The position numbers and the translations under genes were made by a program. A stretch of DNA of 64,000 nt, taken from contig CM067322.1 of the NCBI GenBank assembly GCA_034231615.1, positions 53,098,118 to 53,162,117 on the forward strand, in the 5' to 3' direction. The notes below the pieces were generated by a model, which was not told the origin of the DNA, did not search any database, and saw nothing but the letters and a program-made list of their open reading frames with translations. Below, one piece after another: positions 5,382 to 60,991 of the stretch (position 1 is the first letter of the stretch; every line of letters starts with the position of its first letter). The stretch comes from Meghimatium bilineatum (lineage: Eukaryota > Mollusca > Gastropoda > Stylommatophora > Philomycidae).

Positions 5382-6035
5382 CTAAACGTCTTCACGCTTG
5401 TGGTCACATGGAATGGAGTTTGTAGGATTCAAACTCCAAATTCCCGTAGAAATACATGACAACTCTTTCCAGAGCGTAGACTTCCTCTTATGAATATCCT
5501 GAAATTCCCGCGGTCTCTGGCAAGCTGTCCCGCTTCCTCCAACGACATGTGCATGCATTTTTGAATATCTCTTGTCCAACGACGTCTAGGTCGAGCTCTG
5601 CTTCTACTGCCTTTTAGCGCTCCCCTCCAATAACACTCTTTCCATGCCATCGTGTCTCTTCACATGGTCGAAAAAAACTTCCTTATTAATATGGTGTTCA
5701 AAAGTCAGCCTTCTTGAACGTTTTTTTTCTTAGCACGTCTTGGTTGGTCGTTCTTGCTGTCCATGGTATTCTTAGGACTTCTATAACACTTCATTTCAAA
5801 TGCCTCTATTCCCGCCGAAGACGGATGTGTTGGGCCATTGGCGCAAATAAAACGGCAACACAACGCATTTCCATTCTCTGGACTACATCCAATTGGAAAT
5901 CTTGTAGGACCAAGGTCCTGTTACAAGAGAAATCCAGGGGGAATTTGAGAATGAACGCTGAAGAAGAAGAAATGCCTCTATTCTCTTAGCTGTAGTTTTA
6001 TTTATTGTCCATATTTCGCAGACGTAGTTCGCCAC
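5382..6035 (-). mobile_element. LINE 3'-part, split by a SINE insertion
   Basis: On the minus strand the frame gives KGSRSRARPRRRWTRDIQKC followed by MSLEEAGQLARDRGNF, the C-terminal tail of a LINE polyprotein. The same family occurs at 39805-40229. Upstream in element order (5690-5811 and 5984-6035 on the plus strand) is the segment encoding the SETWTINKTTAK-like region, interrupted by a SINE at 5812-5969. Frameshifts and stops are present, so it is a dead copy. A further similar scrap lies near 6120-6170. Confidence 0.75.
5812..5969 (+). mobile_element. SINE family A copy, 14-bp target-site duplication
   Basis: The element runs from CCGCCGAAGACGGATGTG to a (GAA)n tail and is flanked by AAATGCCTCTATTC at 5798-5811 and 5970-5983. 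It sits inside a LINE remnant, which dates the SINE as the younger insertion. Related copies in the window are at 41743-41901 (+), 44611-44768 (-), 57668-57820 (-), with a diverged one at 43990-44155 (-). It has no coding capacity. Internal polymerase III boxes are not obvious. Confidence 0.85.
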
Positions 6036-12314: not shown

Positions 12315-12339
12315 GCTATTTAATCTATGCGGACTATTT

Positions 12340-17295: not shown

Positions 17296-18630
17296 CTGCG
17301 GGGTGCAAAGGGAACGCATTGCTCTAGGCGGGCCCAGGGTTAGCAGATAACCAAGATCCCAAATGTACCTCCAAGCGGTGCACCCTGGAAACAGAAATAC
17401 AGCAGCTCGAGCTGATTCTGGCCAAATCATTTGGGGATCGTGTCCGAGAATGTGGAGGTAGCAGATGGAAAGAGATTTGACTGCACAAGAGACAGACACT
17501 ATCTCCGACACCACCAGTATCACCACATATAGCTACACTGTCGACATACAGAAAAGCTAGTCAGTCCAGTCCGAACATTGGAGGGGCGGCCAATGTAAAA
17601 TGCACGTAAAGGTAGATGCATGGCGAGAGACAAATAGATTTCATACCGAGTACAATGAAACAATGAAAGGGCAGAACAGCGCTAGAGGGCAGCGCGAACT
17701 GCAAATAGAAAGTGAAAAGTCCCTAGGAAAGGGGAACTACAACCTCCGTCAGCTCGAGACAAGCTTCTAGTTACCTGTGTTCCTTACAGGCAGAGACACA
17801 GACCCATCCATTGGCGTTTCGTAAAGCAAGAAGACCTAACCCAACTCTTATGTCGAGCCTTCCTAAACCGGAAATATGCTCGCGGAGAGAAAGGGTTCTG
17901 TACCCGAAGGGTTTAGGCAAGAAAGGAACAACGGTGGTAGTCCTGGCCCAACTCTACTGTCATGGTTTCCTATAACGGATGTACACTTGCAGAGAGAAAG
18001 GGTTCCGTACCCGATGGGCTCAGGCACAAAAGGGACAACGATTTAGCCCTGGCCCAACTCTACTGTCAGGTTTTCCTACACCGGAAATACACTTGAAGAG
18101 AGAAAGGGTTCAGTACCTAATGGGCTCAGGCGCTATTGGGACAAAGACGCTCAGCTCGAAAACGCCTTGCTCTAAAACGCGTGGTGTGAGACTCGAACTT
18201 TGACAAGGGGTACATGATGTCTGTGAACTACACCTCGGCTAAGAGGACGAAAGAGCCAGGGTCCAAATCCTCTGTTGAGTTCTTCCTCTTAAGGAACCAG
18301 GCTCACGGATGAGAAACGGTTCAGTACCCAATGGGCACAGGCACAGCACGTCCAATTACACGAGGCAAGTTCATAGACAGTGGAACACCTCGTGCGAGTC
18401 AGACGAGAGCAAAAGTCGTCTGGGCGAAGAGTCGCCACTACGCGTGCCTGGAGACAGATATAGAGGCTGTCACAGGCTAAGGGTAGCCCACCCGAATTGT
18501 CAAGGCATGCCGAAATCGGATGTGCTATGCCTACTAGGCGCATAACGGTGGCACAACGTAATCACGCTCCCGGCGGAAATCCCACGGATATCCGTGATGG
18601 TTAAAATGGAGCGAACGCAAAACAAACAAA
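17296..18630 (+). mobile_element. Element C: longest copy of a 1.3-kb non-coding retroposon
   Basis: It runs from GGGGTGCAAAGGGAACGC to a (AAAC)n-like tail, GCAAAACAAACAAAC. Related copies lie at 31678-32742 (inverted), 60198-60981 (5'-truncated, with a 10-bp duplication) and 9830-10088 (fragment). The middle (about 17840-18160) contains three or four internal repeats of about 100 bp, each with CCGGAAATA, GAGAGAAAGGGTTC-GTACC, GGGCTCAGGC and GCCCAACTCTACTGTC. No frame in it has recognisable protein motifs. Truncation at the 5' end plus the tail imply LINE-type reverse transcription. It could be the 3' untranslated region of an unseen LINE or a large SINE-like retroposon. Confidence 0.8.
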
Positions 18631-19194: not shown

Positions 19195-20297
19195 AGAAAA
19201 ATATCTCTATTGTTCAGATCTATTCACCGACAACAGCAGATGACCATGAGATGGATACTTTTTACGAACAACTACAGCGCATTCTAGATACAACGAACAG
19301 ACAGCATTATTATATTAATGGGGTATTTCGACGCTAAAGTAAGGAAAGGAAGAGCACATCATGAGATTATATCTCCAGGGAAGTATAGCTTAAGTAATAG
19401 AAACAAAAGGGATGAACCATTGCTCAATTTCTTTTGTTTGGTAAACAATCTAGCAATCATGAATACATTTTTTGAACAACTTCCCAGAAGATTATTTACG
19501 TGGAGTTCAATATTGAAAAAGTAAAAATCAAATAGATTACATATTGATCCAACAAAGATGGAAAACAAGCATTCCCCTAAGTAAAACATTACCTGGAGCA
19601 GACTGCGACAGATATCACGAACTATTGATGATGACGTTTAAAGTAAATACAAAGAAAATCAACAAGAACACCCATATCATTAGATATAATACATTAGACA
19701 TCAAGCGATACAATATCAATTGAAATACAGATTTACCACACTACTAGATATACAAGAAGAATTAACACTAAACGATATTTCCAACAAAATAAGCCAAGCT
19801 ATCATCACCCCAGCAGTAAAGCTTTTAAAAAAAGACGCAGATAACAAGAATACATATCAGAAGAAACAATGACCTTAATTAAAGATAGAACAAGATGCAA
19901 AGCAGCCGGAAAAAGCCAGACTACAGAGAGCTATCACAACAAATTAAGAAACGAATCAGGCATGGCAAACAAAAATACGTGCAGAGACGTTCATGAACAA
20001 AGACAACAAGGAAATAACAAAAATATGTTCAATGATATAAGAACATTACAAGAGAATAACTTCCAACCCACACTTGGAGTACTAAAGGATTGAAAAAGGG
20101 AGTACCCTAACAGAGAAACCATATATTTTACATAGATAGAAGGAATATTGTCACGAAATGTATAAAGGAACAACCCAGTCATCAATGACTTAGAGCAAGA
20201 ACCAGAACCTACAATGGAAGAGGTCAGACATTCAATCAGAAATCTGAAAAAAGGAAAAAGCTCCAGGTAACGACGGAGCAACATCAGAGATGATACT
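19195..20297 (+). mobile_element. LINE 5'-to-middle part: endonuclease and start of RT, broken
   Basis: The first part encodes YSPTTADDHEMDTFYEQLQ and then MGYFDAKVRKGRAHHEI, NFFCLVNNLAIMNTFFEQ and PRRLFTWSS. This is an apurinic-type LINE endonuclease in which the usual MGDFNAKV reads MGYFDAKV, so a catalytic Asp is lost. Downstream come RSYHNKLRNE-like linker sequence and EPEPTMEEVRHSIRNLKKGK just before the reverse-transcriptase palm (NDGATSEMI). Multiple stops and frameshifts are present. The element is cut off at about 20297 by a SINE family B copy. It is the only endonuclease domain in the window. Confidence 0.8.
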
Positions 20298-20583
20298 TTT
20301 CTTTTTCTTCTGCCGTCGTTCTCAAACTCCTGTAGATTGACAGGATGTATTCAGGAGAACGGAATTCGTTGTGTCATGGTTTATAGCATTGCTGCGATAT
20401 CTACGCCTTTCGGCCTGACACATCCACTTTCAACATGGCTTTGGGTCACTGGTCCCATATGGGATGAGACAGCCATCTCCATCATATAATCTCCTTAGTC
20501 GCTACCTACGACATGCATGGAAGGTAAGCAGTGTTGCTATTCTCTTCTTCTCTCTCGGGGTCCCGGCAACACACTGGCGATAG
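20298..20583 (-). mobile_element. SINE family B, nearly full length
   Basis: In plus orientation it starts with TTTTTCTTCTGCCGTCGTTC and ends with CTCGGGGTCCCGGCAACACA. It contains GTCGCTACCTACGACATGC, the degenerate form of the self-complementary GTCGCC-TTTTACGACATGC of the 53626 copy. Sense is minus, ending in a (GAA)n tail. It truncates the LINE on its left. Confidence 0.8.
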
Positions 20584-25076: not shown

Positions 25077-28000
25077 CTGCAACGTTTGTACACAACCTCC
25101 TGTTACTGTGAAGTGGACAATTCCATAGTTAAGCTGTTGCGTGTATCTAAAGTCCGTGAATGAATGTAGCTGGGGGGTATAAAGGTGGACAATCCCATAG
25201 TAAGGCCTTCCTTCTATATCTGGGCAGAATAGAGGTGGACAATCCCATAGTAAGGCCTTTCTTCTATATCTGGGCAGAATAGAGGTGGATAATCCCATAG
25301 TAAGGCCTTTCTTCTATATCTAGGCAGAATAGAGGTGGACAATCCCATATTAAGGCCTTTCTTCTATATCTGGGCAGAATAGAGGTGGACAATCCCATAG
25401 TAAGGCCTTTCTTCTATATCTGGGCAGAATAGGTGGATAATCCCATAGTAAGGCCTTCCTTCTATATCTGGGCAGAAAAGAGATGGATAATCCCATAGTA
25501 AGGCCTTTCTTCTATATCTGGGCAGAATAGGTGGATAATCCCATAGTAAGGCCTTTCTTCTATATCTGGGCAGAATAGAGGTGGATAATCCCATAGTAAG
25601 GCCTTTCTTCTATATCTGGGCAGAATAGGTGGATAATCCCATAGTAATGCCTTCCTTCTATATCTGGGCAGAATAGAGGTGGATAATCCCATAGTAAGGC
25701 CTTTCTTCTATATCTGGGCAGAATAGGTGGATAATCCCATAGTAAGGCCTTTCTTCTATATCTGGGCAGAATAGGTGGATAATCCCATAGTAAGGCCTTT
25801 CTTCTATATCTGGGCAGAATAGAGGTGGACAATCCCATAGTAAGGCCTTTCTTCTATATCTGGGCAGAATAGAGGTGGATAATCCCATAGTAAGGCCTTT
25901 CTTCTATATCTGGGCAGAATAGGTGGATAATCCCATAGTAAGGCCTTTCTTCTATATCTGGGCAGAATAGGAGGATAATCCCATAGTAATGCCTTCCTTC
26001 TATATCTGGGCAGAATAGAGGTGGATAATCCCATAGTAAGGCCTTTCTATATCTGGGCAGAATAGAGGTGGATAATCCCATAGTAAGGCCTTTCTTCTAT
26101 ATCTGGGCAGAATAGGTGGATAATCCCATAGTAAGGCCTTTCTTCTATATCTGGGCAGAATAGGTGGATAATCCCATAGTAATGCCTTCCTTCTATATCT
26201 GGCCAGAATAGAGGTGGATAATCCCATAGTAAGGCCTTTCTTCTATATCTGGGCAGAATAGGTGGATAATCCCATAGTAATGCCTTCCTTCTATATCTGG
26301 GCAGAATAGAGGTGGATAATCCCATAGTAAGGCCTTTCTTCTATATCTGGGCAGAATAGAGGTGGATAATCCCATAGTAAGGCCTTTCTTCTATATCTGG
26401 GCAAAATAGAGGTGGATAATCCCATAGTAAGGCCTTTCTTCTATATCTGGGCAGAATAGGTGGATAATCCCATAGTAAGGCCTTTCTTCTATATCTGGGC
26501 AGAATAGGTGGATAATCCCATAGTAAGGCCTTTCTTCTATATCTGGGCAGAATAGAGGTGGATAATCCCATAGTACGGCCTTTCTTCTATATCTGGGCAG
26601 AATAGGTGGATAATCCCATAGTAAGGCCTTTCTTCTATATCTGGGCAGAATAGAGGTGGATAATCCCATAGTAAGGCCTTTCTTCTATATCTGGGCAGAA
26701 TAGAGGTGGATAATCCCATAGTAAGGCCTTTCTTCTATATCTGGGCAGAATAGAGGTGGATAATCCCATAGTAAGGCCTTTCTTCTATATCTGGGCAGAA
26801 TAGGTGGATAATCCCATAGTAAGGCCTTTCTTCTATATCTGGGCAGAATAGGTGGATAATCCCATAGTAATGCCTTCCTTCTATATCTGGGCAGAATAGA
26901 GGTGGATAATCCCATAGTAAGGCCTTTCTTCTATATCTGGGCAGAATAGGTGGATAATCCCATAGTAAGGCCTTTCTTCTATATCTGGGCAGAATAGAGG
27001 TGGATAATCCCATAGTAATGCCTGTCTTCTATATCTGGGCAGAATAGAGGTGGATAATCCCATAGTAAGGCCTTTCTTCTATATCTGGGCAGAATAGGTG
27101 GATAATCCCATAGTAAGGCCTTTCTTCTATATCTGGGCAGAATAGGTGGATAATCCCATAGTAAGGCCTTTCTTCTATATCTGGGCAGAATAGGTGGATA
27201 ATCCCATAGTAAGGCCTTTCTTCTATATCTGGGCAGAATAGGTGGATAATCCCATAGTAATGCCTTCCTTCTATATCTGGGCAGAATAGAGGTGGATAAT
27301 CCCATAGTAAGGCCTTTCTTCTATATCTGGGCAGAATAGGTGGATAATCCCATAGTAAGGCCTTTCTTCTATATCTGGGCAGAATAGGTGGATAATCCCA
27401 TAGTAATGCCTTCCTTCTATATCTGGGCAGAATAGAGGTGGATAATCCCATAGTAAGGCCTTTCTTCTATATCTGGGCAGAATAGAGGTGGACAATCCCA
27501 TAGTAAGGCCTTCCTTCTATATCTGGGCAGAATAGAGGTGGATAATCCCATAGTAAGGCCTTCCTTCTTTATCTGGGCAGAATAGAGGTGGATAATCCCA
27601 TAGTAATGCCTTCATTCTATATCTGGGCAGAATAGAGGTGGATAATCCCATAGTAAGGCCTTCCTTCTATATCTGGGCAGAATAGAGGTGGATAATCCCA
27701 TAGTAAGGCCTTTCTTCTATATCTGGGCAGAATGGAGGTGGATAATCCCATAGTAATGCCTTCCTTCTATATCTGGGCAGAATAGGTGGATAATCCCATA
27801 GTAAGGCCTTCCTTCTATATCTGGGCAGAATAGGTGGATAATCCCATAGTAATGCCTTCCTTCTATATCTGGGCAGAATAGAGGTGGATAATCCCATAGT
27901 AATGCCTTCCTTCTATATCTGGGCAGAATAGGTGGATAATCCCATAGTAAGGCCTTCCTTCTATATCTGGGCAGAATAGGTGGATAATCCCATAGTAATG

Positions 28001-28240
28001 CCTTCCTTCTATATCTGGGCAGAATAGAGGTGGATAATCCCATAGTAAGGCCTTCCTTCTATATCTGGGCAGAATAGAGGTGAACAATCCATAGTGAGGC
28101 ATTGCCTGCACAGCTGGGTAAATTATAGATGGACAATCCCATAGTTAGGCCTTGCGTGTATCTAAATGTTCGTGAATGAATGCAGCTGGGCAGAATAGAG
28201 GTGGACAATCCCGTAGTTAGTCATTCCTTGTACCTTGATG
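25077..28240. repeat. 48/50-bp minisatellite, about 60 copies, with 72-bp edge units
   Basis: The unit starts GTGGATAATCCCATAGTAAG and continues GCCTTTCTTCTATATCTGGG and CAGAATAGAG. Two length forms exist, 50 bp with AATAGAGGTGG and 48 bp with AATAGGTGG; a third variant has AATGCCTTCC. At both edges (about 25110-25180 and 28100-28240) units are longer, about 72 bp, and hold an extra GTGAATGAATG-AGCTGGG segment. Because 48 is divisible by three, minus-strand frames reading PRYRRKALLWDYPP repeatedly open. These are not genes. Confidence 0.95.
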
Positions 28241-28749
28241 TCCGTGAATGAATACTGCAATACAGACTGGAGCTGACATGGTAATATATCATGACTGAAA
28301 TACACAGTTCTAAGTATAAAATAGAAATGAAAAACATATTGACACATATTGAATGTGTATTATATATCTCGAATCAAGTGGTTCGCCGAACCACAGCCAC
28401 CACTGTTATTTGGCAAAAACATCAACTCTGATATAACCAAAGTGGACTCATATCCGCGGATACAGGGAGCGGACATCACTATAAAAGATGTTTAAAAAAA
28501 TTAACAGATGCAAAACACTAGACTATACTGTGAATATCGTGGTCAAACCATGGCCTTCATTATTGTTGATATTGACAGTTTTGATATAACCGACTTGGAC
28601 TAACATTCGAGGTTGAAGTAGACGTTTCACCCCACAAGAAGTATATTTTTATTTTTTTCACAACAGAGACATGGAATATGTAATGATAATGATAAAATAA
28701 TACATAGAAATGTATAGAAGTGAGCATCATGGGAGTTTCGCCAGAAAGT
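28241..28749. other. Unassigned DNA
   Basis: Nothing recognised. Confidence 0.4.
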
Positions 28750-28985
28750 CAAATAATTATCTTCTTCTTCGTTTGCGTTTGTTATTCAATTCCTGCAGAT
28801 TAGCATGATGAAATCACGAGAACATAATGCGATGTTACGTGGTTTACTGAAACATCTGCGTCTTTAGACCTGAAACATCCGATTTCAGCATGACTTCTGG
28901 ATCACTTTGGTTCTCTATAGGATGGGGCAGCCAACTCCACCACTAAACCTCTTAAGTTGTCTCCCACTAGTCGTAAAAGCACATA
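28750..28985 (-). mobile_element. SINE family B, old copy
   Basis: It has TCTTCTTCTTCG, AATTCCTGCAGATTAGCA, CATCCGATTTCAGCATGAC and GGATGGGGCAGCCAACTCCA in the same order as the 53626 copy, with many substitutions. Confidence 0.65.
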
Positions 28986-31677: not shown

Positions 31678-32742
31678 CCATATCTGTATCCAGGCACGCG
31701 TGTATGTGGTGACTCTTCGACCAGACGATTTTAACTCTCGTCTGTCTCGCACGAGGTGATCCACTGTCTATGAACTTGCCTCGTGTAATTGGATGTACTG
31801 TGCATGTGCCCATCGGGTACGGAACCGTTTCTCATCTGTGAGCCTGGTTCCTTAAGGGGAAGAACTTAACAGAAGAGTTGGACTCTGGCTCTTTCGCCCT
31901 CTTAGCGGAGGTGTCATTCATCAACATCGTGTACCTCTTGTCAAAATTCGAGTCTCACACCAAGCGTTTGAGAGCAAGGCGTTCTCGAGCTGAGCGACCT
32001 TGTCCCAATAGCGCCTGAGCCCATCAGGTACTGAACCCTTTCTCTCTGCAAGTGTATTTCCGGTATTAGAAAACCTGACATTAGAGTTGGGCCAGGGCTA
32101 AATTCGTTGTCTCTTTTGTGCCTGAGCCCATCGGGTACGGAGCCCTTTCTCTTCGCGGGCATATTTCCGGTTTAGGAAGGCTCGACATTAGAGTTGGTTT
32201 AGGTCTTATTGCTTTTCGGAACGCCAATGGATGGGTCTGGGTCTCTACCTGTAAGGAGTACAGGTAACTAGAAGCTCGTCTCGAGCTGACGGAGCTTGTA
32301 GTTCCCCATTCCTAGGAACTTTTCACTTTCTATTTGCAGTTCGCGCTGCCCTCTAGCACTGTTCTGCCCTTTCATTGTTTCATTGTACTCAGTATGAAAT
32401 TTGTTAGTCCCTCTTCATGACTCTACCTTTACGTGCATTTTACATTGGCCGCCCCTCCAATGTTCGGACTGGACTGACTATTTTCACTGTATGTCGACAG
32501 TGTCGCTATATGTGGTGATGCTGGTAGTGTCGGAGATATTGTCTGTCTCTTATGCAGTCAAATCTCTTTCCATCTGTTACCTCCATATTCTCGGACACAA
32601 TCTCCAAATGATTTGGCCAGAATCAGTTCGAGCTGCTGTATTTCTGTTTCCAGGGTGCACCGCGAGGAGGTACATTTGGAATCTTGGTTATCTGCTAACC
32701 CTGGGTCCGCCTAGAGCAATGCGTTCCCTTTGCACCCCCCAT
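31678..32742 (-). mobile_element. Element C, inverted copy
   Basis: Its reverse complement matches 17296-18460 almost throughout, including the start GGGGGTGCAAAGGGAACGC, the GCGCTGCCCTCTAGC region and the internal repeats. It keeps the 5' end (at 32742) but stops about 170 bases before the normal 3' tail, at the boundary with the 36-bp minisatellite. Losing the 3' end is unusual for a retroposon and suggests deletion or array expansion after insertion. Together with the 17-kb copy it forms a 1-kb inverted repeat 13 kb apart. Confidence 0.85.
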
Positions 32743-33357: not shown

Positions 33358-34247
33358 TACGAGGCGTGTTCAAATGAAAACGGGACTTGTTACACCACGC
33401 GTGATAGAGCGCACTGATATTGATGACATTTTGCACTAGTAATGAGTATCCAATAATTTACATACGGTCACGTGTTCATCTTCCCAGCATGCATATGTGC
33501 TGCAGAAGACTGTTAACAATATGGCGGGTGTGATTCCGAACCCGTCCAAAGTGAATCAGCGTGCTGTGATCCAGTTTCTTTCATTTGAAGGATGTCAAGC
33601 AGTAGACATTCATCGGAGAATGAAGGCAGCATATGGTGACAAATGTTTGTCGAGGACCAGAGTGATGGAGTGGGTGCGTATGTTTAAAGACGGACGTGAG
33701 TTAACGGCAGATCTTGCACGGCCAGGTCAGGCGCATATTGTTGCAACAGAAGAAGACACTTTAGACAAGCTGCATAAGGCCATCAAGGCTAAGCGACCAG
33801 GCAGACTTTCTCAAGGTGTGATTCTTCTCCACGACAACGCTCGTCCGCACGTCGCAAAAATTGTGCAGGAAACATTGGCAAAGAAGAATTGGGAAGTTCT
33901 TCATCACCCAGCCTATAGTCCCGATTTATCCCCGTGTGATTTCCATTTGTTCGGACCGTTGAAGAAAGCACTAAAGGGACAGCGATTCAACAGCGACGCA
34001 GACGTGAAGACAGCGGTGACCACATGGTTCAGAGAACAGCCACGCAACTTTTTCTCGGACGGCATTCGACGTCTACCTAAACAGTGGGATGCTTGCCTAA
34101 ATGCATACGGAGATTTTTTCTGATGAACCCAGGTGCATTCTTATTCACAAGTGGTTGCTTTGTTCAATTCCGTTGAAAATATTAAATTGCGTATGATACT
34201 TTTTAAATAAATCCACAAGTCCCGTTTTCATTTGAACACGCCTCGTA
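33358..34247 (+). mobile_element. Mariner transposon, 886 bp, perfect TIRs, internally deleted
   Basis: The left terminal repeat starts CGAGGCGTGTTCAAATGAAA at 33360. Its perfect 31-bp reverse complement ends at 34245. The element is bounded by TA dinucleotides at 33358-33359 and 34246-34247, the target duplication expected of the mariner family. Full-length mariners are about 1.3 kb, so about 400 bp is missing from the middle. Perfect repeats and an open frame argue for recent activity, probably mobilised by a full-length relative elsewhere. Confidence 0.92.
33497..34123 (+). CDS. Mariner transposase, internally deleted (208 aa)
   Basis: The frame has an N-terminal DNA-binding half, with QRAVIQFLSFEGCQAVDIHR and RTRVMEWVRMFKDGR giving the paired helix-turn-helix type fold. 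It then jumps from KAIKAKRPGRLSQ directly to GVILLHDNARPHVAK and YSPDLSPCDFHLF. HDN and CDF supply the last two aspartates of the D,D34D triad (34 residues between them). The first Asp and its surrounding segment are gone. Full-length proteins are about 345 residues. The deletion keeps the frame, so a protein could be made that binds the terminal repeats but cannot cut DNA. Translation may instead begin at the second Met, residue 9 (MAGVIPNPSK). The 3' end SDGIRRLPKQWDACLNAYGDFF is intact. Confidence 0.88.
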   Translation: MLQKTVNNMAGVIPNPSKVNQRAVIQFLSFEGCQAVDIHRRMKAAYGDKCLSRTRVMEWVRMFKDGRELTADLARPGQAHIVATEEDTLDKLHKAIKAKRPGRLSQGVILLHDNARPHVAKIVQETLAKKNWEVLHHPAYSPDLSPCDFHLFGPLKKALKGQRFNSDADVKTAVTTWFREQPRNFFSDGIRRLPKQWDACLNAYGDFF

Positions 34248-41733: not shown

Positions 41734-41742
41734 ATTCGAAAA

Positions 41743-41901
41743 CCCGCCGAAGACTTATGTGTTGGGCCATTGGCGCAAATAAAACGGCGACACAACGCAT
41801 TTTCATTCTCTGGATTACGTTTTGCTGGAAATCTAGTAGCGTCATAGTGCTGCTACAAGGGAGATACACCAGGAGTGTGAGAATGAACGCTGAAGAAGAA
41901 G
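41743..41901 (+). mobile_element. SINE family A copy, 9-bp target-site duplication
   Basis: It runs from CCGCCGAAGACTTATGTG to the (GAA)n tail and is flanked by ATTCGAAAA at 41734-41742 and 41902-41910. Sequence matches the 5812 and 44611 copies. Confidence 0.85.
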
Positions 41902-41910
41902 ATTCGAAAA

Positions 41911-42870: not shown

Positions 42871-43989
42871 ACTTGATTCAGCTGAGATTTAAACGGAATG
42901 GATATGGTTCGAATATTGTGTGCCTATTGTAATATTAGACAAATGTAACCACCTTCCTGAGGACAACATACACTTCTGATTCTATCTTGATTGACCGAAC
43001 CTTTTGGATGTTGGGGAAGGCTGTACCCAATCTAACTACCAAAGGAGCACTCTCACCTTATAATCCAAGTATTTTTGCTCAAAGTACGTTCCATCACATG
43101 TGCAATGCGAAGTTCAACATACACAAATCGTAAACTGTTGAAATATTCAGCATCACAGTACACAATAACAAACTTGAAGTACGTGAAATAAAATGTAAAG
43201 ATTATTAGACAACACTAGTCTTGCTTACAGGAAATGAAATAATGGTCACCCTTGGACCGCGATAGAAGTGTGAACAGACATTGGCTGAAAATTTCATTAC
43301 CATTTTGGAAAGTACGATAGTATTAAGCGACCACATGGATCGTTGGTTGGACAGTATGAATGCTCTGGATTATATGTACTTTACTTTGGCTTTGTGTTGT
43401 CTATAAATCTTCTTATATTGTGCAAACGGCTTGGTTCGCTCCACTGGTAAATGTCTTGTGATTATGTAGAGATTAATCACTATTTGACATTTGAACTAGA
43501 TTGTAGGTTTAAGTATAGTCTTAGTGAAGAATTTTTGTATTATTATAGCAATCTTGTCATAGTGGAGACATTTCGTTCTTGGTACGAACATCTAGTACTA
43601 ATCTCCAATTAGTAAAAAAAAGTATCTTTTCTTATTCGGACATGAGTCCAGTTTGGTTATATGGTCGTTAAGACCATAATAATTAATGGATGTTGTGGTT
43701 CGGGTAATCCTACTAGCACAGTCTCCAAGAGAAGTATAAATCCTAGTGCATAAATAGAAAAAAATATAGTTTTATTGTCGTATATATTAAAAATCGTATC
43801 TCGGTGAAGATATATTTCTGTTAGTGCAGAAGTTTTAAATTTGTATAGAAATTTTAAAATATCTCTTTGTAGAAATTTTAATTTAGCGGGTAGACAGCGG
43901 ATAGAGTTTTCATGATTCCATTGAACGTCTCCGAAATGCGAAAGAACGATTAATGAGCCCATTGGTATCCTTTGCTTTGGTCCATATCT
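42871..43989. other. Unassigned DNA
   Basis: A frame at 43657-43962 (-), 101 codons, has no recognised motif. Nothing else seen. Confidence 0.4.
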
Positions 43990-44155
43990 TCGTTTTCAGT
44001 GTTCATTCTCACTCACACTCCCAATGAATCTCTCTTGTTGCAGGACCATGGTCCTATTAGATTTCCAGCAGGATGTAATCCAGAGATTTTAATTGCGTTG
44101 TGTCGCCATTTTATTTGCGTCAATGTCTCGACACATTCGTCTTCGACAAAACTTC
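43990..44155 (-). mobile_element. SINE family A, diverged copy
   Basis: CAGGACCATGGTCCTATTAG and TTTCCAGCAGGATGTAATCC, then TGTGTCGCCATTTTATTTGC, align with the 44611 copy. Ends are degraded. Confidence 0.75.
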
Positions 44156-44282
44156 TGTGCATATAAAGTGCAAACATTTAAATCCAATGCACAGATTTAT
44201 AAAAACATAACATATAAACTTCCAGAAGGCCACATTGAAGACATGTAGCCATGTTTGAGATATTGTGTTCCGATACATTTCA

Positions 44283-44464
44283 CAAAAATAAATGGGGCAA
44301 AGGGAATGATCTCATGGACCACTGACTCAGCAACTAACCAACAAAAAAAATGGGGCAAAGGGAATAATCTCATGGACCACCGAACCAGCAACTAACCAAC
44401 ACAAATAAATGGGGCAAAGGGAATTATCTCATGGAAAACTGACTCAGCAACTAACCAACACAAA
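44283..44464. repeat. 58-59-bp tandem repeat, 3 copies
   Basis: AAATGGGGCAAAGGGAAT followed by ATCTCATGGA and CAGCAACTAACCAACA recurs at about 44291, 44349 and 44408. Confidence 0.9.
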
Positions 44465-44610
44465 TAAACGTAAACAAGTTAATGTCCTGGGACTTAAAAA
44501 ATGACTCTCACGTAACAGAAGACTAGCACGTTTGAAACAATATTTTATGATATGTATGTCTCAGAAATGTTTTAATTGTCGCTTGATATAAAATGCAAAA
44601 TGAGTTGTTT

Positions 44611-44768
44611 CTTCTTCTTCTTCGGCGTTCATTCTCAAACTCCTGCTGAATTCTCTTATAGCAGGACCATGGTCCTACTAGATTTCCAGCAGGATGTAGT
44701 CCAGAGAATGGAAATGCGTTGTGTCGCCGTTTTATTTGCGCCAATGGCCCGACACATCCTTCTTCGGC
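44611..44768 (-). mobile_element. SINE family A copy, 7-bp target-site duplication
   Basis: Plus-strand text runs from CTTCTTCTTCTTCGGCG to CATCCTTCTTCGGC, flanked by GTTGTTT at 44604-44610 and 44769-44775. It includes the GCAGGACCATGGTCCTACTA block related to the 34-bp minisatellite at 46 kb. Confidence 0.8.
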
Positions 44769-44775
44769 GTTGTTT

Positions 44776-45385: not shown

Positions 45386-46145
45386 GTTAGTCCACGAAGT
45401 TCAAACCCAGATTTTCGTGCAGTTGTATTTCATTGGAAATTTTGACACATAACAGTAGTTGAATTTTTACCAGTTATTGTTCTGAAGAAATCTTGTCTTA
45501 ATTAATAAATATTTATTAATGAAGAAATCTTGTCTTAATGAAGAAATATTGTCCACTTTCTCTAAATATATAGCCAGATCACTGTCTTGTGCCGACTCGT
45601 GAAAGTATATGGATGAAATAATTTAAAGATGGCAAGAATTTGCACGAAAAGAGTTACATGTTCTATTGTAAAAAAGAGCAACGTTGTGTGAAAAGAGAAG
45701 AAATGCAGCAGTTCAACAGCGGAGAGTAGATAGAAAGCCACAAGTAGACCAAAAACCATCTAGAGTGGTCATTCCATGCCCGAGCTGTGCAAGGAAATTT
45801 GCAGCTTTAACTTTAACTCAATTTCAAAAATGGATGTAAAAAATGGTCATCATCACTTGTGATGGTCTAACAACAAGAAAACTCTTCTTAATTTGCATTC
45901 GAACCAAGATTTCGTTGCACGGTAGCCAATGCTCTAACAACTACGTGAACTCATACTTTCGGATTTGGCCATTATCGGTTTAGATCAGGGCAGTGCAAAA
46001 TGTGACACGCAACGCCATTGTTTTATTACCCGCCATATTGATCTAATAAAAGTACTCTATGAATTAGCATTCAAACTCATAACGCTTAGACCTCCAAGTG
46101 ACTACACACACACACAAATATCTTGACCCCATAAAACGATAGAAT
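45386..46145. other. Unassigned DNA
   Basis: Nothing recognised. Confidence 0.4.
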
Positions 46146-49100
46146 TATCCCACTGGATCTCTCTTGTAGCAGACCAATAATCTCACTGGATTTCTCTTGT
46201 ACCAGGACAATGATCTCACTGGATCTCTCTTGTAGCAGGACAACGATCTCACTGGATCTCTCTTGTAGCAACAACATTGATCTCACTGGATCTCTCTTGT
46301 AGCAACAACACTGATCTCACTGGATCTCTCTTGTACCATAACACTGATCTCACTGGATCTCTCTTGTAGCAACAACACTGATCTCACTGGATCTCTCTTG
46401 TACCATAACACTGATCTCACTGGATCTCTCTTGTAGCAAGAACACTGATCTCACTGGATCTCTCTTGTAGCAACAACACTGATCTCACTGGATCTCTCTT
46501 GTAGCAACAACACTGATCTCACTGGATCTCTCTTGTAGCAACAACACTGATCTCAGTGGATCTCTCTTGTAGCAACAACATTGATCTCACTGGATCTCTC
46601 TTGTAGCAACAACACTGATCTCACTGGATCTCTCTTGTAGCAACAACACTGATCCCACTGGATCTCTCTTGTAGCAACAACACTGATCTCACTGGATCTC
46701 TCTTGTAGCAACAACACTGATCTCACTGGATCTCTCTTGTAGCAACAACACTGATCTCACTGGATCTCTCTTGTAGCAACAACACTGATCTCACTGGATC
46801 TCTCTTGTAGCAACAACACTGATCTCACTGGATCTCTCTTGTAGCAACAACACTGATCTCACTGGATCTCTCTTGTAGCAACAACACTGATCTCACTGGA
46901 TCTCTCTTGTAGCAACAACACTGATCTCACTGGATCTCTCTTGTAGCAACAACACTGATCTCACTGGATCTCTCTTGTAGCAAGAACACTGATCTCACTG
47001 GATCTCTCTTGTAGCAACAACACTGATCCCACTGGATCTCTCTTGTAGCAACAACACTGATCTCAGTGGATCTCTCTTGTAGCAACAACATTGATCTCAC
47101 TGGATCTCTCTTGTACCATAACATTGATCTCACTGGATCTCTCTTGTACCATAACACTGATCCCACTGGATCTCTCTTGTAGCAACAAAACTGATCTCAC
47201 TGGATCTCTCTTGTAGCAACAACACTGATCTCACTGGATCTCTCTTGTAGCAACAACACTGATCTCACTGGATCTCTCTTGTAGCAAGAACATTGATCTC
47301 ACTGGATCTCTCTTGTAGCAACAACACTGATCCCACTAGATCTCTCTTGTAGCAACAACACTGATCTCACTGGATCTCTCTTGTAGCAACAACACTGATC
47401 TCACTGGAACTCTCTTGTACCAGAACACTGATCCCACTGGATCTCTCTTGTAGCAACAACACTGATCTCACTGGATCTCTCTTGTAGCAACAAAACTGAT
47501 CTCACTGGATCTCTCTTGTAGCAACAACACTGATCACACTGGATCTCTCTTGTAGCAACAAAACTGATCTCACTGGATCTCTCTTGTAGCAACAACACTG
47601 ATCTCACTGGATCTCTCTTGTAGCAACAACACTGATCTCACTGGATCTCTCTTGTAGCAAGAACACTGATCTCACTGGATCTCTCTTGTAGCAACAACAC
47701 TGATCCCACTGGATCTCTCTTGTAGCAACAACACTGATCTCACTGGATCTCTCTTGTAGCAACAACACTGATCTCACTGGAACTCTCTTGTACCAGAACA
47801 CTGATCCCACTGGATCTCTCTTGTAGCAACAACACTGATCTCACTGGATCTCTCTTGTAGCAACAACACTGATCTCACTGGATCTCTCTTGTAGCAACAA
47901 CACTGATCTCACTGGATCTCTCTTGTAGCAACAACACTGATCTCACTGGATCTCTCTTGTAGCAACAACACTGATCTCACTGGATCTCTCTTGTAGCAAG
48001 AACACTGATCTCAGTGGATCTCTCTTGTAGCAACAACACTGATCTCACTGGATCTCTCTTGCAGCAAGAACACTGATCTCACTGGATCTCTCTTGTAGCA
48101 ACAACACTGATCTCACTGGAACAACTCTCTTGTACCAGAACACTGATCCCACTGGATCTCTCTTGTAGCAACAACACTGATCTCACTGGATCTCTCTTGT
48201 AGCAACAAAACTGATCTCACTGGATCTCTCTTGTAGCAACAACACTGATCTCACTGGATCTCTCTTGTAGCAACAAAACTGATCTCACTGGATCTCTCTT
48301 GTAGCAACAACACTGATCTCACTGGATCTCTCTTGTAGCAACAACACTGATCTCACTGGATCTCTCTTGTAGCAAGAACACTGATCTCACTGGATCTCTC
48401 TTGTAGCAACAACACTGATCCCACTGGATCTCTCTTGTAGCAACAAAACTGATCTCACTGGATCTCTCTTGTAGCAACAACACTGATCTCACTGGATCTC
48501 TCTTGTAGCAACAAAACTGATCTCACTGGATCTCTCTTGTAGCAACAACACTGATCTCACTGGATCTCTCTTGTAGCAACAACACTGATCTCACTGGATC
48601 TCTCTTGTAGCAAGAACACTGATCTCACTGGATCTCTCTTGTAGCAACAACACTGATCCCACTGGATCTCTCTTGTAGTAACAACACTGATCTCACTGGA
48701 TCTCTCTTGTAGCAACAACACTGATCTCACTGGAACTCTCTTGTACCAGAACACTGATCCCACTGGATCTCTCTTGTAGGAACAACACTGATCTCACTGG
48801 ATCTCTCTTGTAGCAACAACACTGATCTCACTGGATCTCTCTTGTAGCAACAACACTGATCTCACTGGATCTCTCTTGTAGCAACAACACTGATCTCACT
48901 GGATCTCTCTTGTAGCAACAACACTGATCTCACTGGATCTCTCTTGTAGCAAGAACACTGATCTCACTGGATCTCTCTTGTAGCAACAAAACTGATCTCA
49001 CTGGATCTCTCTTGTAGCAACAACACTGATCTCACTGGATCTCTCTTGTAGCAACAACACTGATCTCACTGGATCTCTCTTGTAGCAAGAACACTGATCT

Positions 49101-50104
49101 CACTGGATCTCTCTTGTAGCAACAACACTGATCCCACTGGATCTCTCTTGTAGTAACAACACTGATCTCACTGGATCTCTCTTGTAGCAACAACACTGAT
49201 CTCACTGGAACTCTCTTGTACCAGAACACTGATCCCACTGGATCTCTCTTGTAGGAACAACACTGATCTCACTGGATCTCTCTTGTAGCAACAACACTGA
49301 TCTCACTGGATCTCTCTTGTAGCAACAACACTGATCTCACTGGATCTCTCTTGTAGCAACAACACTGATCTCACTGGATCTCTCTTGTAGCAACAACACT
49401 GATCTCACTGGATCTCTCTTGTAGCAAGAACACTGATCTCACTGGATCTCTCTTGTAGCAACAACACTGATCTCACTGGATCTCTCTTGTAGCAACAACA
49501 CTGATCTCACTGGATCTCTCTTGTAGCAACAACACTGATCTCACTGGAAGTCTCTTGTACCAGAACACTGATCCCACTGGATCTCTCTTGTAGCAACAAC
49601 ACTGATCTCACTGGATCTCTCTTGTAGCAACAAAACTGATCTCACTGAATCTCTCTTGTAGCAACAACACTGATCTCACTGGATCTCTCTTGTAGCAACA
49701 AAACTGATCTCACTGGATCTCTCTTGTAGCAACAACACTGATCTCACTGGATCTCTCTTGTAGCAACAACACTGATCTCACTGGATCTCTCTTGTAGCAA
49801 CAACACTGATCTCACTGGATCTCTCTTGTAGCAACAACACTGATCTCACTGGATCTCTCTTGTAGCAACAACACTTATCTCACTGGATCTCTCTTGTAGC
49901 AACAACACTGATCTCACTGGATCTCTCTTGTAGCAACAACACTGATCTCACTGGATCTCTCTTGTAGCAACAACACTGATCTCACTGGATCTCTCTTGTA
50001 GCAACAACACTGATCTCACTGGATCTCTCTTGTAGCAACAACACTGATCTCACTGGATCTCTCTTGTAGCAACAACACTGATCTCACTGGATCTCTCTTG
50101 TAGC
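46146..50104. repeat. 34-bp minisatellite, about 116 copies, nearly 4 kb
   Basis: The unit is ATCTCACTGGATCTCTCTTG followed by TAGCAACAACACTG. The outermost units differ and read TTGTAGCAGGACAATGATCT, a close match to the GCAGGACCATGGTCCTACTA region of SINE family A. Variant units (GGAACTCTCTTGTACCAGAAC, TAGTAAC, TAGGAAC, CTGATCCCAC) recur at fixed spacing, showing higher-order structure of about 475 bp. Minus-strand frames of 60-79 codons are artefacts. Confidence 0.95.
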
Positions 50105-50210
50105 AGGACAATGATCTTACTAGATTTCTAGCAGTATGTATACAAGATAACGAAAATAATTTATGTCCTGATTAATTTGTGCTATTGATCCTACACATCC
50201 GACTTCAGTG
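50105..50210 (-). mobile_element. Degenerate SINE family A/B remainder next to the 34-bp array
   Basis: Directly after the array the text continues as ACTAGATTTCTAGCAG-ATGTA, then a weak middle, then CCTACACATCCGACTTCAG, which keeps the order of the SINE region (ACTAGATTTCCAGCAGGATG ... CACATCC). Confidence 0.6.
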
Positions 50211-53625: not shown

Positions 53626-53899
53626 CTCTTCTTCTTCTTCTGCGTTCGTTCTCAAACTCCTGCAGATTAGCAGGATGTAGTCCCGAGAACGGAATGCGTT
53701 GTTTACAGCATTTCTGCGATATCTGCGCCTTTCGACCTGACACATTCGACTTCAGCATGGCTTTGGGACACTGACCCTATATGGGATGGGACAGCCAACT
53801 CCATCCCATAACCTCCTTAGTCGCCTTTTACGACATGCGTGGAAGGTAAACAGTGTTGCTATTCTTTGCTCCCCTTTCGGGCCCCGGCAACACACGGGC
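53626..53899 (-). mobile_element. SINE family B, best copy
   Basis: The plus-strand text runs from CTCTTCTTCTTCTTCTGCG to GGGCCCCGGCAACACACGGGC. Sense is minus, starting GCCCGTGTGTTGCCGGGG and ending in (GAA)n. It contains GTCGTAAAAGGCGACTAAGG (a small hairpin) and shares its last about 70 bases (ACTACATCCTGC-CAGGAGTTTGAGAACGAACGC) with SINE family A. Other copies: 7694, 20298, 28750, plus fragments. Confidence 0.85.
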
Positions 53900-54932: not shown

Positions 54933-55650
54933 CGTGTACTCTCCCAGCGTTCTTTCACTTGTATGCTCTCGGCGTTCTTTCACGTGTACTCACTCAGCGT
55001 TCTTTTACTTGTACTATCTCAACGTTCGTTTACTTGTACTTTCTCAGCGTTCTCTTACTTGTACTTTCTCAGCGTTCTCTTACTTGTACTTTCTCAGCGT
55101 TCTCTTACTTGTACTTTCTCAGCGTTCTTTTACTTGTACTCTCTCAGCGTTCTCTTACTTGTACTTTCTCAGCGTTCTTTTACTTGTACTCTCTCAGCGT
55201 TCTTTTACTTGTACTCTCTCAGCGTTCTTTTACTTGTACTTTCTCAGCGTTCTCTTACTTGTACTTTCTCAGCGTTCTTTTACTTGTACTTTCTCAGCGT
55301 TCTCTTACTTGTACTCTCTCAGCGTTCTTTTACTTGTACTCTCTCAGCGTTCTCTTACTTGTACTCTCTCAGCGTTCTCTTACTTGTACTCTCTCAGCGT
55401 TCTTTTACTTGTACTCTCTCAGCGTTCTCTTACTTGTACTCTCTCAGCGTTCTCTTACTTGTACTCTCTCAGCGTTCTCTTACTTGTACTTTCTCAGCGT
55501 TCTCTTACTTGTACTCTCTCAGCGTTCTCTTACTTGTACTCTCTCAGCGTTCTTTTACTTGTACTCTCTCAGCGTTCTTTTATTTGTTCCCTCTCAACGT
55601 TCTTTTACGTGTACCCTTTCAACGTTCATTTACTTGTACTCAATAATATC
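54933..55650. repeat. 24-bp minisatellite, about 30 copies
   Basis: The unit is TCTCAGCGTTCTTTTACTTG followed by TACT. With no stop codon in any plus frame and a length of eight codons, three overlapping frames of over 240 codons are all open (54899-55734). Three open frames at once show this is repeat structure, not coding. Confidence 0.95.
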
Positions 55651-55689
55651 GTTCTAATACTTGTAATCTCTCATCTTTCTTATACATTA

Positions 55690-56050
55690 ATCTCTCAGCG
55701 TTCTTTCACTTTCTCTCAGCGTTCTTTTAATTAACTCTCAGCGTTCTTTCACTTTCTCTCAGCGTTCTTTCACTTTCTCTCAGCGTTCTTTTAATTAACT
55801 CTCAGCGTTCTTTCACTTTCTCTCAGCGTTCTTTTAATTAACTCTCAGCGTTCTTTCACTTTCTCTCAGCGTTCTTTTAATTAACTCTCAGCGTTCTTTC
55901 ACTTTCTCTCAGCGTTCTTTTAATTAACTCTCAGCGTTCTTTCACTTTCTCTCAAAGTTCTTTTAATTAACTCTCAGCGTTCTTTCACTTTCTCTCAGCA
56001 TTCTTTCACTTGTTCTCTCTCAGCGCTTTTTCACTTGTACTCTCTCAACC
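55690..56050. repeat. 43-bp dimeric minisatellite derived from the 24-bp array
   Basis: Units of CTCTCAGCGTTCTTTCACTT (about 21 bp) alternate with TCTCAGCGTTCTTTTAATTA (about 22 bp) in strict pairs. The TTAATTAAC mark recurs at about 55791, 55834, 55877, 55920 and 55963, exactly 43 bp apart. The core CTCAGCGTTCTTT is the same as in the 24-bp array. Confidence 0.92.
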
Positions 56051-56587
56051 GTTCTTTCATGTGTACTTTTACAACATTTTTTCAGATGCACGCTCTAAGC
56101 AATCTTTCACTTTTCTTCTCTCATCGTCCTCTTATACGCTCGCGGAGTTTTATCATCATTATTGATGGGAATAAACATTTATTGTGGAAAAGTACACTCA
56201 CATTAACAATACGATACATTCTTACGTGACATTTTACAAACACATCACATATGACATTTGAATGTGTATACTTTTGTTTACAATTGATTGATTAAATGTG
56301 TTATATAAATACATAGACACCAGAGCCATAGGTCAATGGAAATCAGGTGACCCTTATGAAATACTGTATTTAATTCATATAATTTCTAAGCGTTATTCTT
56401 AGCAGATATTTATATTCCCACAATAACATTTGCACGAATATTTGTAAATTCACAATAATGAAATGATCAGTCTATCCTAACATGGAACTTTAATCTTGCT
56501 GTTACATATCGCTTATTAGTATTAATGTTCACGATATATTTTGATGAAGGTCAAATTTAGAATACACTTAATCCTAATTAGTTTACG
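56051..56587. other. Unassigned DNA
   Basis: Decaying repeat scraps to about 56150, then nothing recognised. Confidence 0.4.
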
Positions 56588-57648: not shown

Positions 57649-57667
57649 ATTAGTTTATTTTATTCTC

Positions 57668-57820
57668 CTTCTTCAGCGTTCATTCTCAAACTGCTGCTGA
57701 ATTTCCTTTGTAGCAGGACCATTGTCCTACTAGATTTCCAGCAGGATGTAGTCCAGAGAATGGAAATACGTTGTGTCGCCGTTTTATTTGCACCAATGGT
57801 CCGGCACATCCGTCTTCGGC
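57668..57820 (-). mobile_element. SINE family A copy
   Basis: It begins CCTTCTTCAGCGTTCATTC and ends CACATCCGTCTTCGGC, with GCAGGACCATTGTCCTACTA inside. No clear target duplication was found. Confidence 0.85.
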
Positions 57821-58249
57821 TGGATTAACTTGTTTAATAATAAGACCCACAACCCGTAAAAGTCGTAAGTTTGCTACAATTGGGATATCAGTACGTATAT
57901 CCCTTCAAACACCATCTGTCTTTAGTCATTCGGGTGAATATAAAAAATCATGTCTGGACTTTTCTTGATGTTATTAGTTTAAGATTTCTTTGGTTATCTA
58001 ATCTTGCTCCGCGTGAATACCCTCAAAAGTAGCTCTCTACAACAGTCAATTGTGTATTTTTGTTCATGAGTATATATATCTTATGTTTTACATAACCGAT
58101 TGTTTATGAGATGTATGTAGCATGTACTTTTCTAAAGCCTGAAACATTCCGTTTCTTTCCGTTTCTACATTTAATATGCAGTTCTCATATTCATATAAAA
58201 AATAGTTATAACTGGTTTACAGTATATCATAATCATGACAATAATCTGA
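57821..58249. other. Unassigned DNA
   Basis: Nothing recognised. Confidence 0.4.
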
Positions 58250-60187: not shown

Positions 60188-60991
60188 AACTCAAATACCT
60201 AATCCAACTCTAATGTCGAGCCTTCCTAAACCGGAAATATGCTCGCGAAGAGAGAGGGTTCTGTACCCGATGGGCTTAGGCAAGAAAGGGACAACGATGG
60301 TAGTCCTGGCCCAACTCTACTGTCAAGGTTTCCTATACCGGAAGTACACTTGCAGAGAGAAAAGGTTCTGTACCCGATGGGCTCAGGCACAAAAGGGACA
60401 ACGATTTAGCCCTGGCCCAACTCTACTGTCAGGTTTTCCTACACCGGAAATACACTTGAAGAAAAAAAGTGTTCAGTACCTGATGTTCTCAGGCGCTATT
60501 GTGCTCAGCTCGAGAACGCCTTGCTCTCAAACGCGTGGTGTGAGACTCGAACTTGGACAAGGGGTACACGATGTCGGTTTATGAAACCTCGGCTAAGAGG
60601 ACGAAAGAGCCAGGGTCCAACTCCTCTGTTGAGTTCTTCCCCTAAGGAACCAGGCTCACGGATGAGAAACGGTTCAGTAGCCAATGGGCACAGGCACAGC
60701 ACGCCCAATTACACAAGGCAAGTTCATAGACAGTGGGGCACCTCGTGCGAGTCAGAGGAGAGCAAAAATCGTCTGTGCGAAGAGTCGCCACTACGCGTGC
60801 CTGGAGTCAGATATAGAGGCTGTCACAGGCTAAGGGTAGCCCACCCGAACTGTCAAGGCATGCCGTAATCGGATGTGCTAGGCCTACAAGGCGCATAACG
60901 GTGGCACAACGTAATCACGCTCCTGGCGGAAATCGCACGGATATCCGTGATGGTTACAATGGAGCAAACGCAAAACAAACAAACTCAAATA
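60188..60991 (+). mobile_element. Element C, 5'-truncated copy with 10-bp duplication
   Basis: AACTCAAATA flanks the element at 60188-60197 and 60982-60991. The element (60198-60981, 784 bp) corresponds to about 17840-18625 of the longest copy. It keeps the 3' end GCAAACGCAAAACAAACAAA and lacks the 5' 540 bases. This is direct evidence that element C moves by LINE-type retroposition. Frames at 60135-60584 and 60521-60868 are by-products without known motifs. Confidence 0.85.

What the first reader, a model, noticed from the sequence alone, without database searches (positions are those of the whole stretch)
46146..50210. A 4-kb, 34-bp minisatellite that seems to have grown out of a SINE
The outermost units read TTGTAGCAGGACAATGATCT, almost the GCAGGACCATGGTCCTACTA block of SINE family A. 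Directly after the last unit (50105-50210) the sequence carries on in SINE order (ACTAGATTTCTAGCAG, then CACATCC). The edge units are closer to the SINE than the inner ones, which carry the derived TAGCAACAACACTG. This is what expansion from an internal SINE segment would leave.
Basis: partly seen in the sequence, partly recalled or inferred. Interest (0 to 1): 0.75.

Follow-up and report, generated by a model that had tools for sequence, protein, structure and literature searches.

The report
Minisatellites born from one SINE hairpin
A 4-kb stretch of 117 short repeats grew, in place, out of the inside of a small jumping element (a SINE), and the same spot of that element has started repeat arrays at many other places in this genome, so it offers a natural series for watching how such arrays are born.

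Summary
The 34-bp array (46147-50105, 117 units) ends inside a SINE: 50083-50209 matches a profile of the window's five SINE copies at E 5.5e-20 and is 98 of 123 identical to a consensus from loci on another contig. Units 2, 3 and 117 alone keep the SINE's GGACAA. An exact 25-mer of the derived inner unit occurs 64 times in the 1.6-Gb genome, all here. The left SINE end is not detectable.

It is not a one-off. Two close copies of a 13-mer from the SINE hairpin occur 6838 times (backwards 8); one SINE-body 13-mer gave 0. Of 24 array loci fetched on C1, 22 run into SINE body. Spacings are 23-58 bp. All seven measured 38-41-bp units run from the base to the apex of a predicted stem-loop; the window's 33/34-bp class does not. 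Only 1 of 100 SINEs sampled by a body anchor carries an array. SINE-derived minisatellites are known; the hairpin hot spot seems new. The mechanism is inferred.

The parts
46147..50105 (+). 34-bp minisatellite, 117 units; the + strand is taken to be the SINE's antisense strand, because the CTT/GAA tail lies at the low-coordinate end (inference)
   Evidence: TRF; unit table; exact derived 25-mer found 64 times in the genome, all here
46161..46259 (+). left edge units 1-3, 33 bp each, ancestral form (units 2 and 3 keep GGACAA)
   Evidence: (17.6-18.4 bits to the SINE profile, above all inner units)
50083..50209 (+). last unit running on into the SINE body: SINE remnant, consensus positions 31-153
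   Evidence: nhmmer 67.0 bits, E 5.5e-20; 98/123 identical to the genome consensus
46040..46146 (+). left flank; expected SINE tail end (consensus 1-30) not detectable
   Evidence: 447 of 1000 shuffles score as high
48479..49464 (+). two overlapping exact 511-bp copies at offset 475 (about 14 units), a recent multi-unit duplication inside the array
44612..44772 (+). SINE family A copy, single unit
43986..44151 (+). SINE family A copy, single unit
57663..57826 (+). SINE family A copy, single unit
5808..5971 (-). SINE family A copy, single unit, 14-bp flanking repeat GAATAGAGGCATTT
41740..41903 (-). SINE family A copy, single unit, 9-bp flanking repeat

Best explanation
The array is an in-situ expansion of a short internal segment (consensus 31-63) of one old SINE copy. 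Step 1, shown: the SINE (about 157 bp, CTT/GAA tail, target-site duplications) is spread through the genome. Step 2, inferred: one copy first duplicated the segment, perhaps by slippage or unequal exchange between two partly similar stretches 33 bp apart in the SINE (TCCCACTGGATCTC and TCCTACTAGATTTC), which would give the 33-bp period of the edge units. Step 3, supported: repeated multi-unit duplication and homogenisation spread a derived 34-bp unit through the interior, leaving ancestral units at both edges. Step 4, shown: the same segment has started arrays at many other SINE copies with several different junctions, so it is a hot spot. The measured junctions of the 38-41-bp class run from the base of the predicted 3'-terminal stem-loop to its apex loop, so a hairpin, as DNA during replication or as RNA during reverse transcription, probably causes the first duplication in that class.
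For: Homology of edge and flank to the SINE. Ancestral block only at the edges; derived 25-mer private to this locus. Exact 511-bp block duplication. Retroposon nature: 60 of 100 sampled copies share an 8-mer or longer between left and right flank vs mean 3.8 with shuffled partners. Recurrence: 8 of 75 loci from the unit 21-mer (size-biased), 1 of 100 from the body anchor, and 6838 close pairs of a hairpin 13-mer genome-wide, the window's own array included (backwards control 8), against 0 for a body 13-mer with the same gaps. That body 13-mer is present in 31 of 100 anchor loci (hairpin 13-mer 11 of 100) and in 10 of 74 unit-21-mer regions. Arrays inside whole SINEs with an 11-bp flanking repeat: L013, L187. 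Junctions. Same insertion in two copies (98.7% and 99.1% flank identity) with 12 vs about 122 units: L190/L191.
Against: The left SINE end and a target-site duplication are missing at the window locus. The direct repeat 33 bp apart is not stronger than chance in the consensus: 11/16 is reached by 58 of 100 shuffles. The window junction (31-63) does not end in the apex loop, and five of the 19 pair loci (33/34 bp) and the 58-bp unit of L186 do not fit base-to-apex either. The fold is a single-sequence prediction. Only 1 of 100 anchor-sampled SINEs has an array. Only one body motif was counted as control, and its genome-wide single count is not known.
Confidence: 0.9

Rival explanations
1. Array-bearing SINEs are themselves retrotransposed: a few source copies with a duplicated hairpin arm spread, so many arrays share one birth, as in VNTR-bearing composite elements such as SVA.
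For: Some loci share a junction: L013, L058 and L188 (ACAATG/TTCTC, 41 bp); L014, L187, L193, L194, L195 and L197 (ACA/CATTCTC, 40 bp).
Against: Spacings of 23 to 58 bp and at least eight junction types, by my reading, need several births anyway; of the 24 array loci only L190/L191 share flanks; the window's derived 25-mer is private to the locus.
Confidence: 0.25
2. The first duplication happens during reverse transcription: the enzyme copies the 3' arm of the SINE RNA, reaches the apex of the stem-loop and re-engages at its base, so the new insertion already has two arms.
For: The segment next to the tail is copied first (general knowledge of target-primed reverse transcription); all seven measured 38-41-bp units run from the stem base (17-19) to the apex loop (56-59).
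Against: DNA slippage across the same hairpin predicts the same junctions; the window and the other 33/34-bp loci do not fit base-to-apex.
Confidence: 0.35
3. A SINE landed beside or inside an older minisatellite, and the similarity of unit and SINE is incidental.
For: The left side has no SINE sequence.
Against: The unit itself is SINE sequence (30/33 in units 2 and 3), the last unit runs on into the SINE body without a break, and arrays run into SINE body at 22 of 24 other loci.
Confidence: 0.02
4. The SINE family took its segment from the minisatellite.
For: Family B elements in the window lack the segment.
Against: The derived array 25-mer is confined to this locus, while the SINE form is genome-wide.
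Confidence: 0.02

Closest known systems
SINE-derived satellites (sSats) of squamate reptiles (Vassetzky et al. 2023, PMC10702118; abstract, Discussion, the Squam3 section and some passages read)
   Same: Tandem arrays of an internal SINE segment with SINE sequence continuing at one, sometimes both ends; many loci per genome; several unit variants; homogenisation in long arrays. Its Discussion also cites SINEs with short (about 30 nt) internal duplications.
   Different: Units in the sections I read are 67-215 nt, in snakes mostly one 67-nt unit; here 23-58 bp, several junction types at one hairpin segment, in an unrelated short retroposon of an unidentified genome.
[quoted passage not shown] 1998; seen only as a reference and table entry in PMC6947457 and PMC9659126)
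   Same: A VNTR family grown from inside SINEs.
   Different: Unit listed there as (GGCAGA)n from a GAGGCA dimer; here segments of 23-58 bp.
Minisatellites derived from human Alu (Jurka and Gentles 2006; seen through passages of PMC3389668 and PMC6947457)
   Same: Minisatellites born inside a SINE.
   Different: There tied to short direct repeats; here the measured junctions have 0-3 bases of exact microhomology and the 38-41-bp class tracks a predicted hairpin.
SVA and other VNTR composite retrotransposons (PMC4432496, seen in a search listing only)
   Same: Tandem repeats inside a retroposon.
   Different: There the VNTR is part of the mobile unit (recalled); here arrays differ from locus to locus.

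Membership tests
SINE-derived minisatellite / satellite | Repeat unit corresponds to a segment of a SINE | tested here: met
   Units 2 and 3 are 30/33 identical to the predicted SINE junction unit
SINE-derived minisatellite / satellite | A terminal unit runs on into the SINE up to near its end | tested here: met
   Right end, SINE to position 153 of 157; at the left end tested and not found
SINE-derived minisatellite / satellite | Many loci in the genome | tested here: met
   6838 close pairs; 19 loci in the first 100 places, by my grouping
SINE (retroposon) | Target-site duplications of variable length | tested here: met
   60 of 100 copies share an 8-mer or longer across flanks vs mean 3.8 with shuffled partners
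SINE (retroposon) | Short element with a simple-repeat tail | tested here: met
   About 157 bp, CTTCTTCTTC at one end
SINE (retroposon) | Pol III promoter from tRNA, 7SL or 5S RNA | tested here: inconclusive
   No tRNA gene by ARAGORN and no Rfam match at gathering score in the window; A and B boxes were looked for by eye only. It could be a short LINE-derived retroposon.
VNTR | Copy number varies between alleles or paralogues | tested here: inconclusive
   L190 vs L191, 12 vs about 122 units with 98.7-99.1% identical flanks; an assembly artefact is not excluded. No population data for the window locus.

The most novel reading that the evidence does not exclude
One short hairpin in a SINE is a genome-wide nursery of minisatellites: hundreds to over a thousand arrays of different period started independently in one segment, with junctions set by the stem base and apex loop. 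Array birth would then be structure-driven, and each stage (2 units to over 100) could be read in one genome.
Probability: 0.5. Interest if true: 0.65.

Novelty: new member of a known kind. Interest (0 to 1): 0.55.

Why it matters
How the first duplication of a minisatellite arises is hard to see, because mature arrays erase their start. Here one SINE family offers a series of loci with a known ancestral sequence, a fixed orientation, flanking repeats that mark the undisturbed insertion at some of them, and about 2, 3, 5, 20 or 120 units. The junctions cluster, so models (short-repeat slippage, hairpin stalling, reverse-transcriptase jumping) make different testable predictions.

Tried and rejected
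Hairpin duplication as the origin of the two-armed form (family A) from the one-hairpin form (family B): gapped self-comparison was suggestive (19 of 2000 and 2 of 300 shuffles reach it), but on the genome consensus the ungapped 16-mer repeat is reached by 58 of 100 shuffles. Not claimed.

Other arrays in the window: of 34 tandem loci, no other array's unit matched the family A SINE. In the edge search the array 44282-44468 has family A copies about 140 bp away on both sides, and 11604-12314 has a family B-like copy 25 bp beyond its right end; whether either is more than neighbourhood was not tested. The repeats at 17860 and 60204 belong to one dispersed element also found near 32 kb. The doubled inner unit of the finding's own array found no SINE at E 1e-3, so this test misses old arrays and its negatives mean little.

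SINE in public collections, exact patterns: none in viral contigs or in bacterial and archaeal genomes. By blastn: array edge and a family B copy vs phages, none; family B copy vs plasmids, none. Four sequence strings in papers: none. Organism: not identified. Protein hits were mostly unnamed; names seen were one Cacopsylla and two Elysia and one bacterial MAG. The size, 1.61 Gb in 32 contigs, would fit a land snail, but that is a guess from recall.

Limits. In the 21-mer sample arrays are over-represented, because they hold more 21-mers. The pair count misses arrays with a changed 13-mer (for example L037 and L136 are not among the first 100 pair places). All loci that I fetched by coordinates come from the first 38 Mb of one contig. 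Junctions were read from hand-entered consensus units, uncertain by a base or two, and were not tested against a null model. A second body control (GCAGGATGTAGTC pairs) did not complete. A first script on unit ranking used a wrong rotation and was redone.
Full report
1. The array. TRF gives 46147-50105, period 34, 116.7 copies, 95% match. Cut at CTCTTG it has 117 units in 26 variants, 58 of them identical: 102 of 34 bp, 14 of 33 bp, 1 of 37 bp. A 511-bp block is repeated exactly at an offset of 475 bp, so part of its growth was by blocks of about 14 units.

2. The SINE in the window. Five full copies of 'SINE family A' lie at 44612-44772, 43986-44151, 57663-57826 (+), 5808-5971 and 41740-41903 (-). 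Two have clear flanking repeats of 14 and 9 bp. By eye a third (44612) has GTTGTTT on both sides; the script listed another 7-mer for it, and only 5- and 6-mers for the last two. A second form ('B', copies at 7699, 53627, 20297, 28760 and weaker ones) shares both ends but lacks the segment.

3. Link of array and SINE. A profile of the five copies, built without the array, scores 50083-50209 at 67.0 bits (E 5.5e-20) and the three leftmost units at 17.6-18.4 bits; no inner unit exceeds 14.7. The right flank beyond the last unit outscores 1000 of 1000 shuffles (45 vs at most 15). The left flank does not: 447 of 1000 shuffles reach its score. So the SINE body is preserved on the right, and the tail end has been lost or has diverged on the left.

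4. Genome. The window lies at C25:53098118-53162117 of a 1.61-Gb assembly in 32 contigs. The 21-mer CACTGGATCTCTCTTGTAGCA, taken from the unit, occurs 4188 times, the window's array included (read backwards: 0). The first 100 places, all on C1, make 75 loci, fetched in 74 regions. A consensus from the 69 loci with one exact 21-mer (two of which, L013 and L037, turned out to be arrays), trimmed by hand to 157 bp, reads CTTCTTCTTCAGCGTTCATTCTCAAACTCCCACTGGATCTCTCTTGTAGCAGGACAATGGTCCTACTAGATTTCC... ...CATCCGTCTTCGGCG. Against it, the right edge plus flank of the window array is 98 of 123 identical, the first 29 without a break.

5. Edge versus interior. The unit expected from joining SINE 41-63 to 31-40 is 33 bp, as are the edge units. 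Units 2 and 3 match it at 30/33 without a gap; the commonest inner result (74 of 117 units) is 28/33 with one gap; random window 33-mers score at most 12 against 27. GGACAA is found only in units 2, 3 and 117. Unit 1 is no closer than the interior (27/33), and by identity to a contiguous SINE 33-mer only unit 117 stands out (30/33). Six interspersed 33-bp units (CAGAACACTG, 29/33) look intermediate. The derived inner 25-mer GTAGCAACAACACTGATCTCACTGG occurs 64 times in the genome, all in this array (exact matches only). So the derived form arose and spread here.

6. It is a retroposon. In 100 consecutive loci sampled by a body 32-mer that occurs 5810 times (fetched), 60 share an 8-mer or longer between left and right flank, against a mean of 3.8 with shuffled partners; for 10-mers, 44 against 0.7. 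Four pairs of these loci share flanks, so about 96 are independent. No tRNA gene or Rfam family was found in the window, so strict SINE status (pol III promoter) stays open. The body also resembles the longer B form, so it may be a LINE-tail-derived SINE.

7. Recurrence. In the 21-mer sample, 8 of 75 loci carry arrays: L013 41 bp x 8, L014 40 x 23, L017 26 x 2.9, L018 31/41 x 2 each, L037 39 x 4.9, L048 38 x 14.8, L058 41 x 13, L082 41 x 6. This sample favours arrays. In the body-anchor sample 1 of 100 does: L136, 44 bp x 21.8. L116 is a SINE inside an unrelated low-identity array. In the 134 regions fetched at that point (L009-L142), the internal SINE expansions (9 loci) lie in the hairpin segment; L055 is a dimer of the whole SINE.

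8. Hot-spot test. CTCTCTTGTAGCA twice, 8-36 bases apart, occurs 6838 times in the genome (backwards control 8; the window's own array is included). GTCGCCGTTTTAT from the SINE body, same gaps, occurs 0 times. The body 13-mer is present in 31 of 100 anchor loci against 11 of 100 for the hairpin 13-mer; in the 74 regions chosen by the unit 21-mer it is present in 10 (the hairpin 13-mer in all 74 by construction). Its genome-wide single count was not measured. The first 100 pair places, 0.5-20.3 Mb of C1, fall into 19 loci by my grouping: 12 with spacings of 38-41, 5 of 33/34, 2 of 31 and 2 of 23 or 26, two loci (L018, L193) being mixed. If 19 per 100 holds there are about 1,300 array loci. This is a rough extrapolation from one contig end.

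9. Loci. I fetched the 15 of those 19 not yet held. Units include 31, 33, 34, 38, 40 and 41 bp, with a 23-bp spacing in L193 and a 58-bp unit in L186. A 34-bp array of about 122 copies (L191) equals the window array in size and belongs to the same 33/34-bp class, as do L185, L189 and L190. With the earlier nine there are 24 fetched array loci on C1. SINE body follows the array at 22 of 24 (score 20 or more or, for L136, seen directly), in L186 and L195 for only 20-25 columns; L014 scores 9 and L017 16. No shuffle control was run for these scores. The tail side is weaker: L048, L058, L037, L190 and L191 score 6-11, much like the window (9). The head references differ, so those scores are not strictly comparable. 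Exact 11-bp repeats enclose SINE plus array at L013 (GATTACAAGAT) and L187 (TTCTCCATATG). A third 11-bp match, at L193, is not counted, because nearly the same letters occur in its array.

10. Variation. L190 and L191 share flanks (605 bp at 98.7%, 324 bp at 99.1%) and lie about 260 kb apart; their arrays have 12 units (pattern count) and about 122 (TRF; the pattern count, which misses changed units, gives 73). Either the locus was duplicated and one array changed about tenfold, or the assembly holds two alleles or an artefact.

11. Junctions. On the consensus: 19-59 (L013, L058), 17-57 (L018, L082), 17-56 (L014; L037 with one base less), 19-56 (L048), 28-59 (L018 second), 30/31-55/56 (L017, two units), 31-63 (window). 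L136 joins about 24 to about 62 with filler bases (read by eye). Exact microhomology is 0-3 bases. The predicted fold has its outer stem starting near 18, the inner stem at 28 and the apex loop at 56-59. Of the 11 rows, right-hand ends fall in 56-59 in 9, at 55 in 1 and at 63 in 1; left-hand ends are 17-19 in 7 and 28-31 in 4. This was noticed after the fact on few loci, some of which may share a birth, and was not tested, so it is a lead. The window's 33-bp class, joined between two similar stretches 33 bp apart, needs no hairpin, though that similarity by itself is not above chance.

12. Literature. Minisatellites from SINEs are established: PMC6947457, PMC9659126 and PMC3389668 (passages read) cite mouse B1 (Bois 1998; the first two) and Alu (Jurka and Gentles 2006). 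PMC10702118 (abstract, Discussion, Squam3 section) describes SINE-derived satellites in squamates with SINE ends beside the arrays, cites SINEs with short internal duplications of about 30 nt, and says it is uncertain whether such satellites are restricted to squamates. My searches listed no paper that I recognised as describing this family. Only one search used its letters, the organism is unknown, and the library holds open-licence PMC papers only.

13. Verdict. Observation confirmed, origin supported. The array itself is a new member of a known kind. Its interest comes from the nursery: many births at one small hairpin segment in one genome, at several stages.

Noticed in passing
window 1-64000: 34 tandem loci of period 10 or more cover 17,037 of 64,000 bases (26.6%), among them a 50-bp x 60 array within 25179-28253 and a 25-bp x 47 array at 54935-56057.
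   Followed up: partly
17860-18131, about 31800-32380, 60204-60494: A dispersed element with an internal tandem repeat of about 107 bp; copies match at about 86-92% beyond the repeat. A second TE with tandem repeats inside.
   Followed up: no
7699-7854, 20296-20578, 53626-53899, 28760-28959: Family B retroposons, up to about 280 bp, sharing both ends of family A but with a single short hairpin in place of the segment; possibly 3' ends of a LINE.
   Followed up: partly
11604-12406: A 37-bp x 19 array ends 25 bp before a family B-like copy starting at 12339; not tested whether they are connected.
   Followed up: no
L190 and L191 (C1 3.82 and 4.07 Mb): The same SINE insertion in two copies with near-identical flanks but 12 vs about 122 units.
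   Followed up: partly
L097/L099, L098/L100, L090/L091, L117/L118: Pairs of distinct places with 94-100% identical upstream flanks, hinting at segmental or assembly duplications on C1.
   Followed up: no
L186 (C1 1.48 Mb): A 58-bp unit reaching SINE position about 95, a junction class outside the hairpin rule.
   Followed up: no
104-808 (-), 7743-8414 (+), 33446-34123 (+): Remains of a LINE-type reverse transcriptase (some relatives carry PF00078), a Penelope-like element (relatives with GIY-YIG and PF26215) and a mariner-type DDE transposase.
   Followed up: partly
18465-18558 (-), 60818-60897 (-): A distant relative of the family B body with another short palindrome (CACGGATATCCGTG) near the hairpin's place, which might point to a conserved 3' stem-loop.
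   Followed up: no
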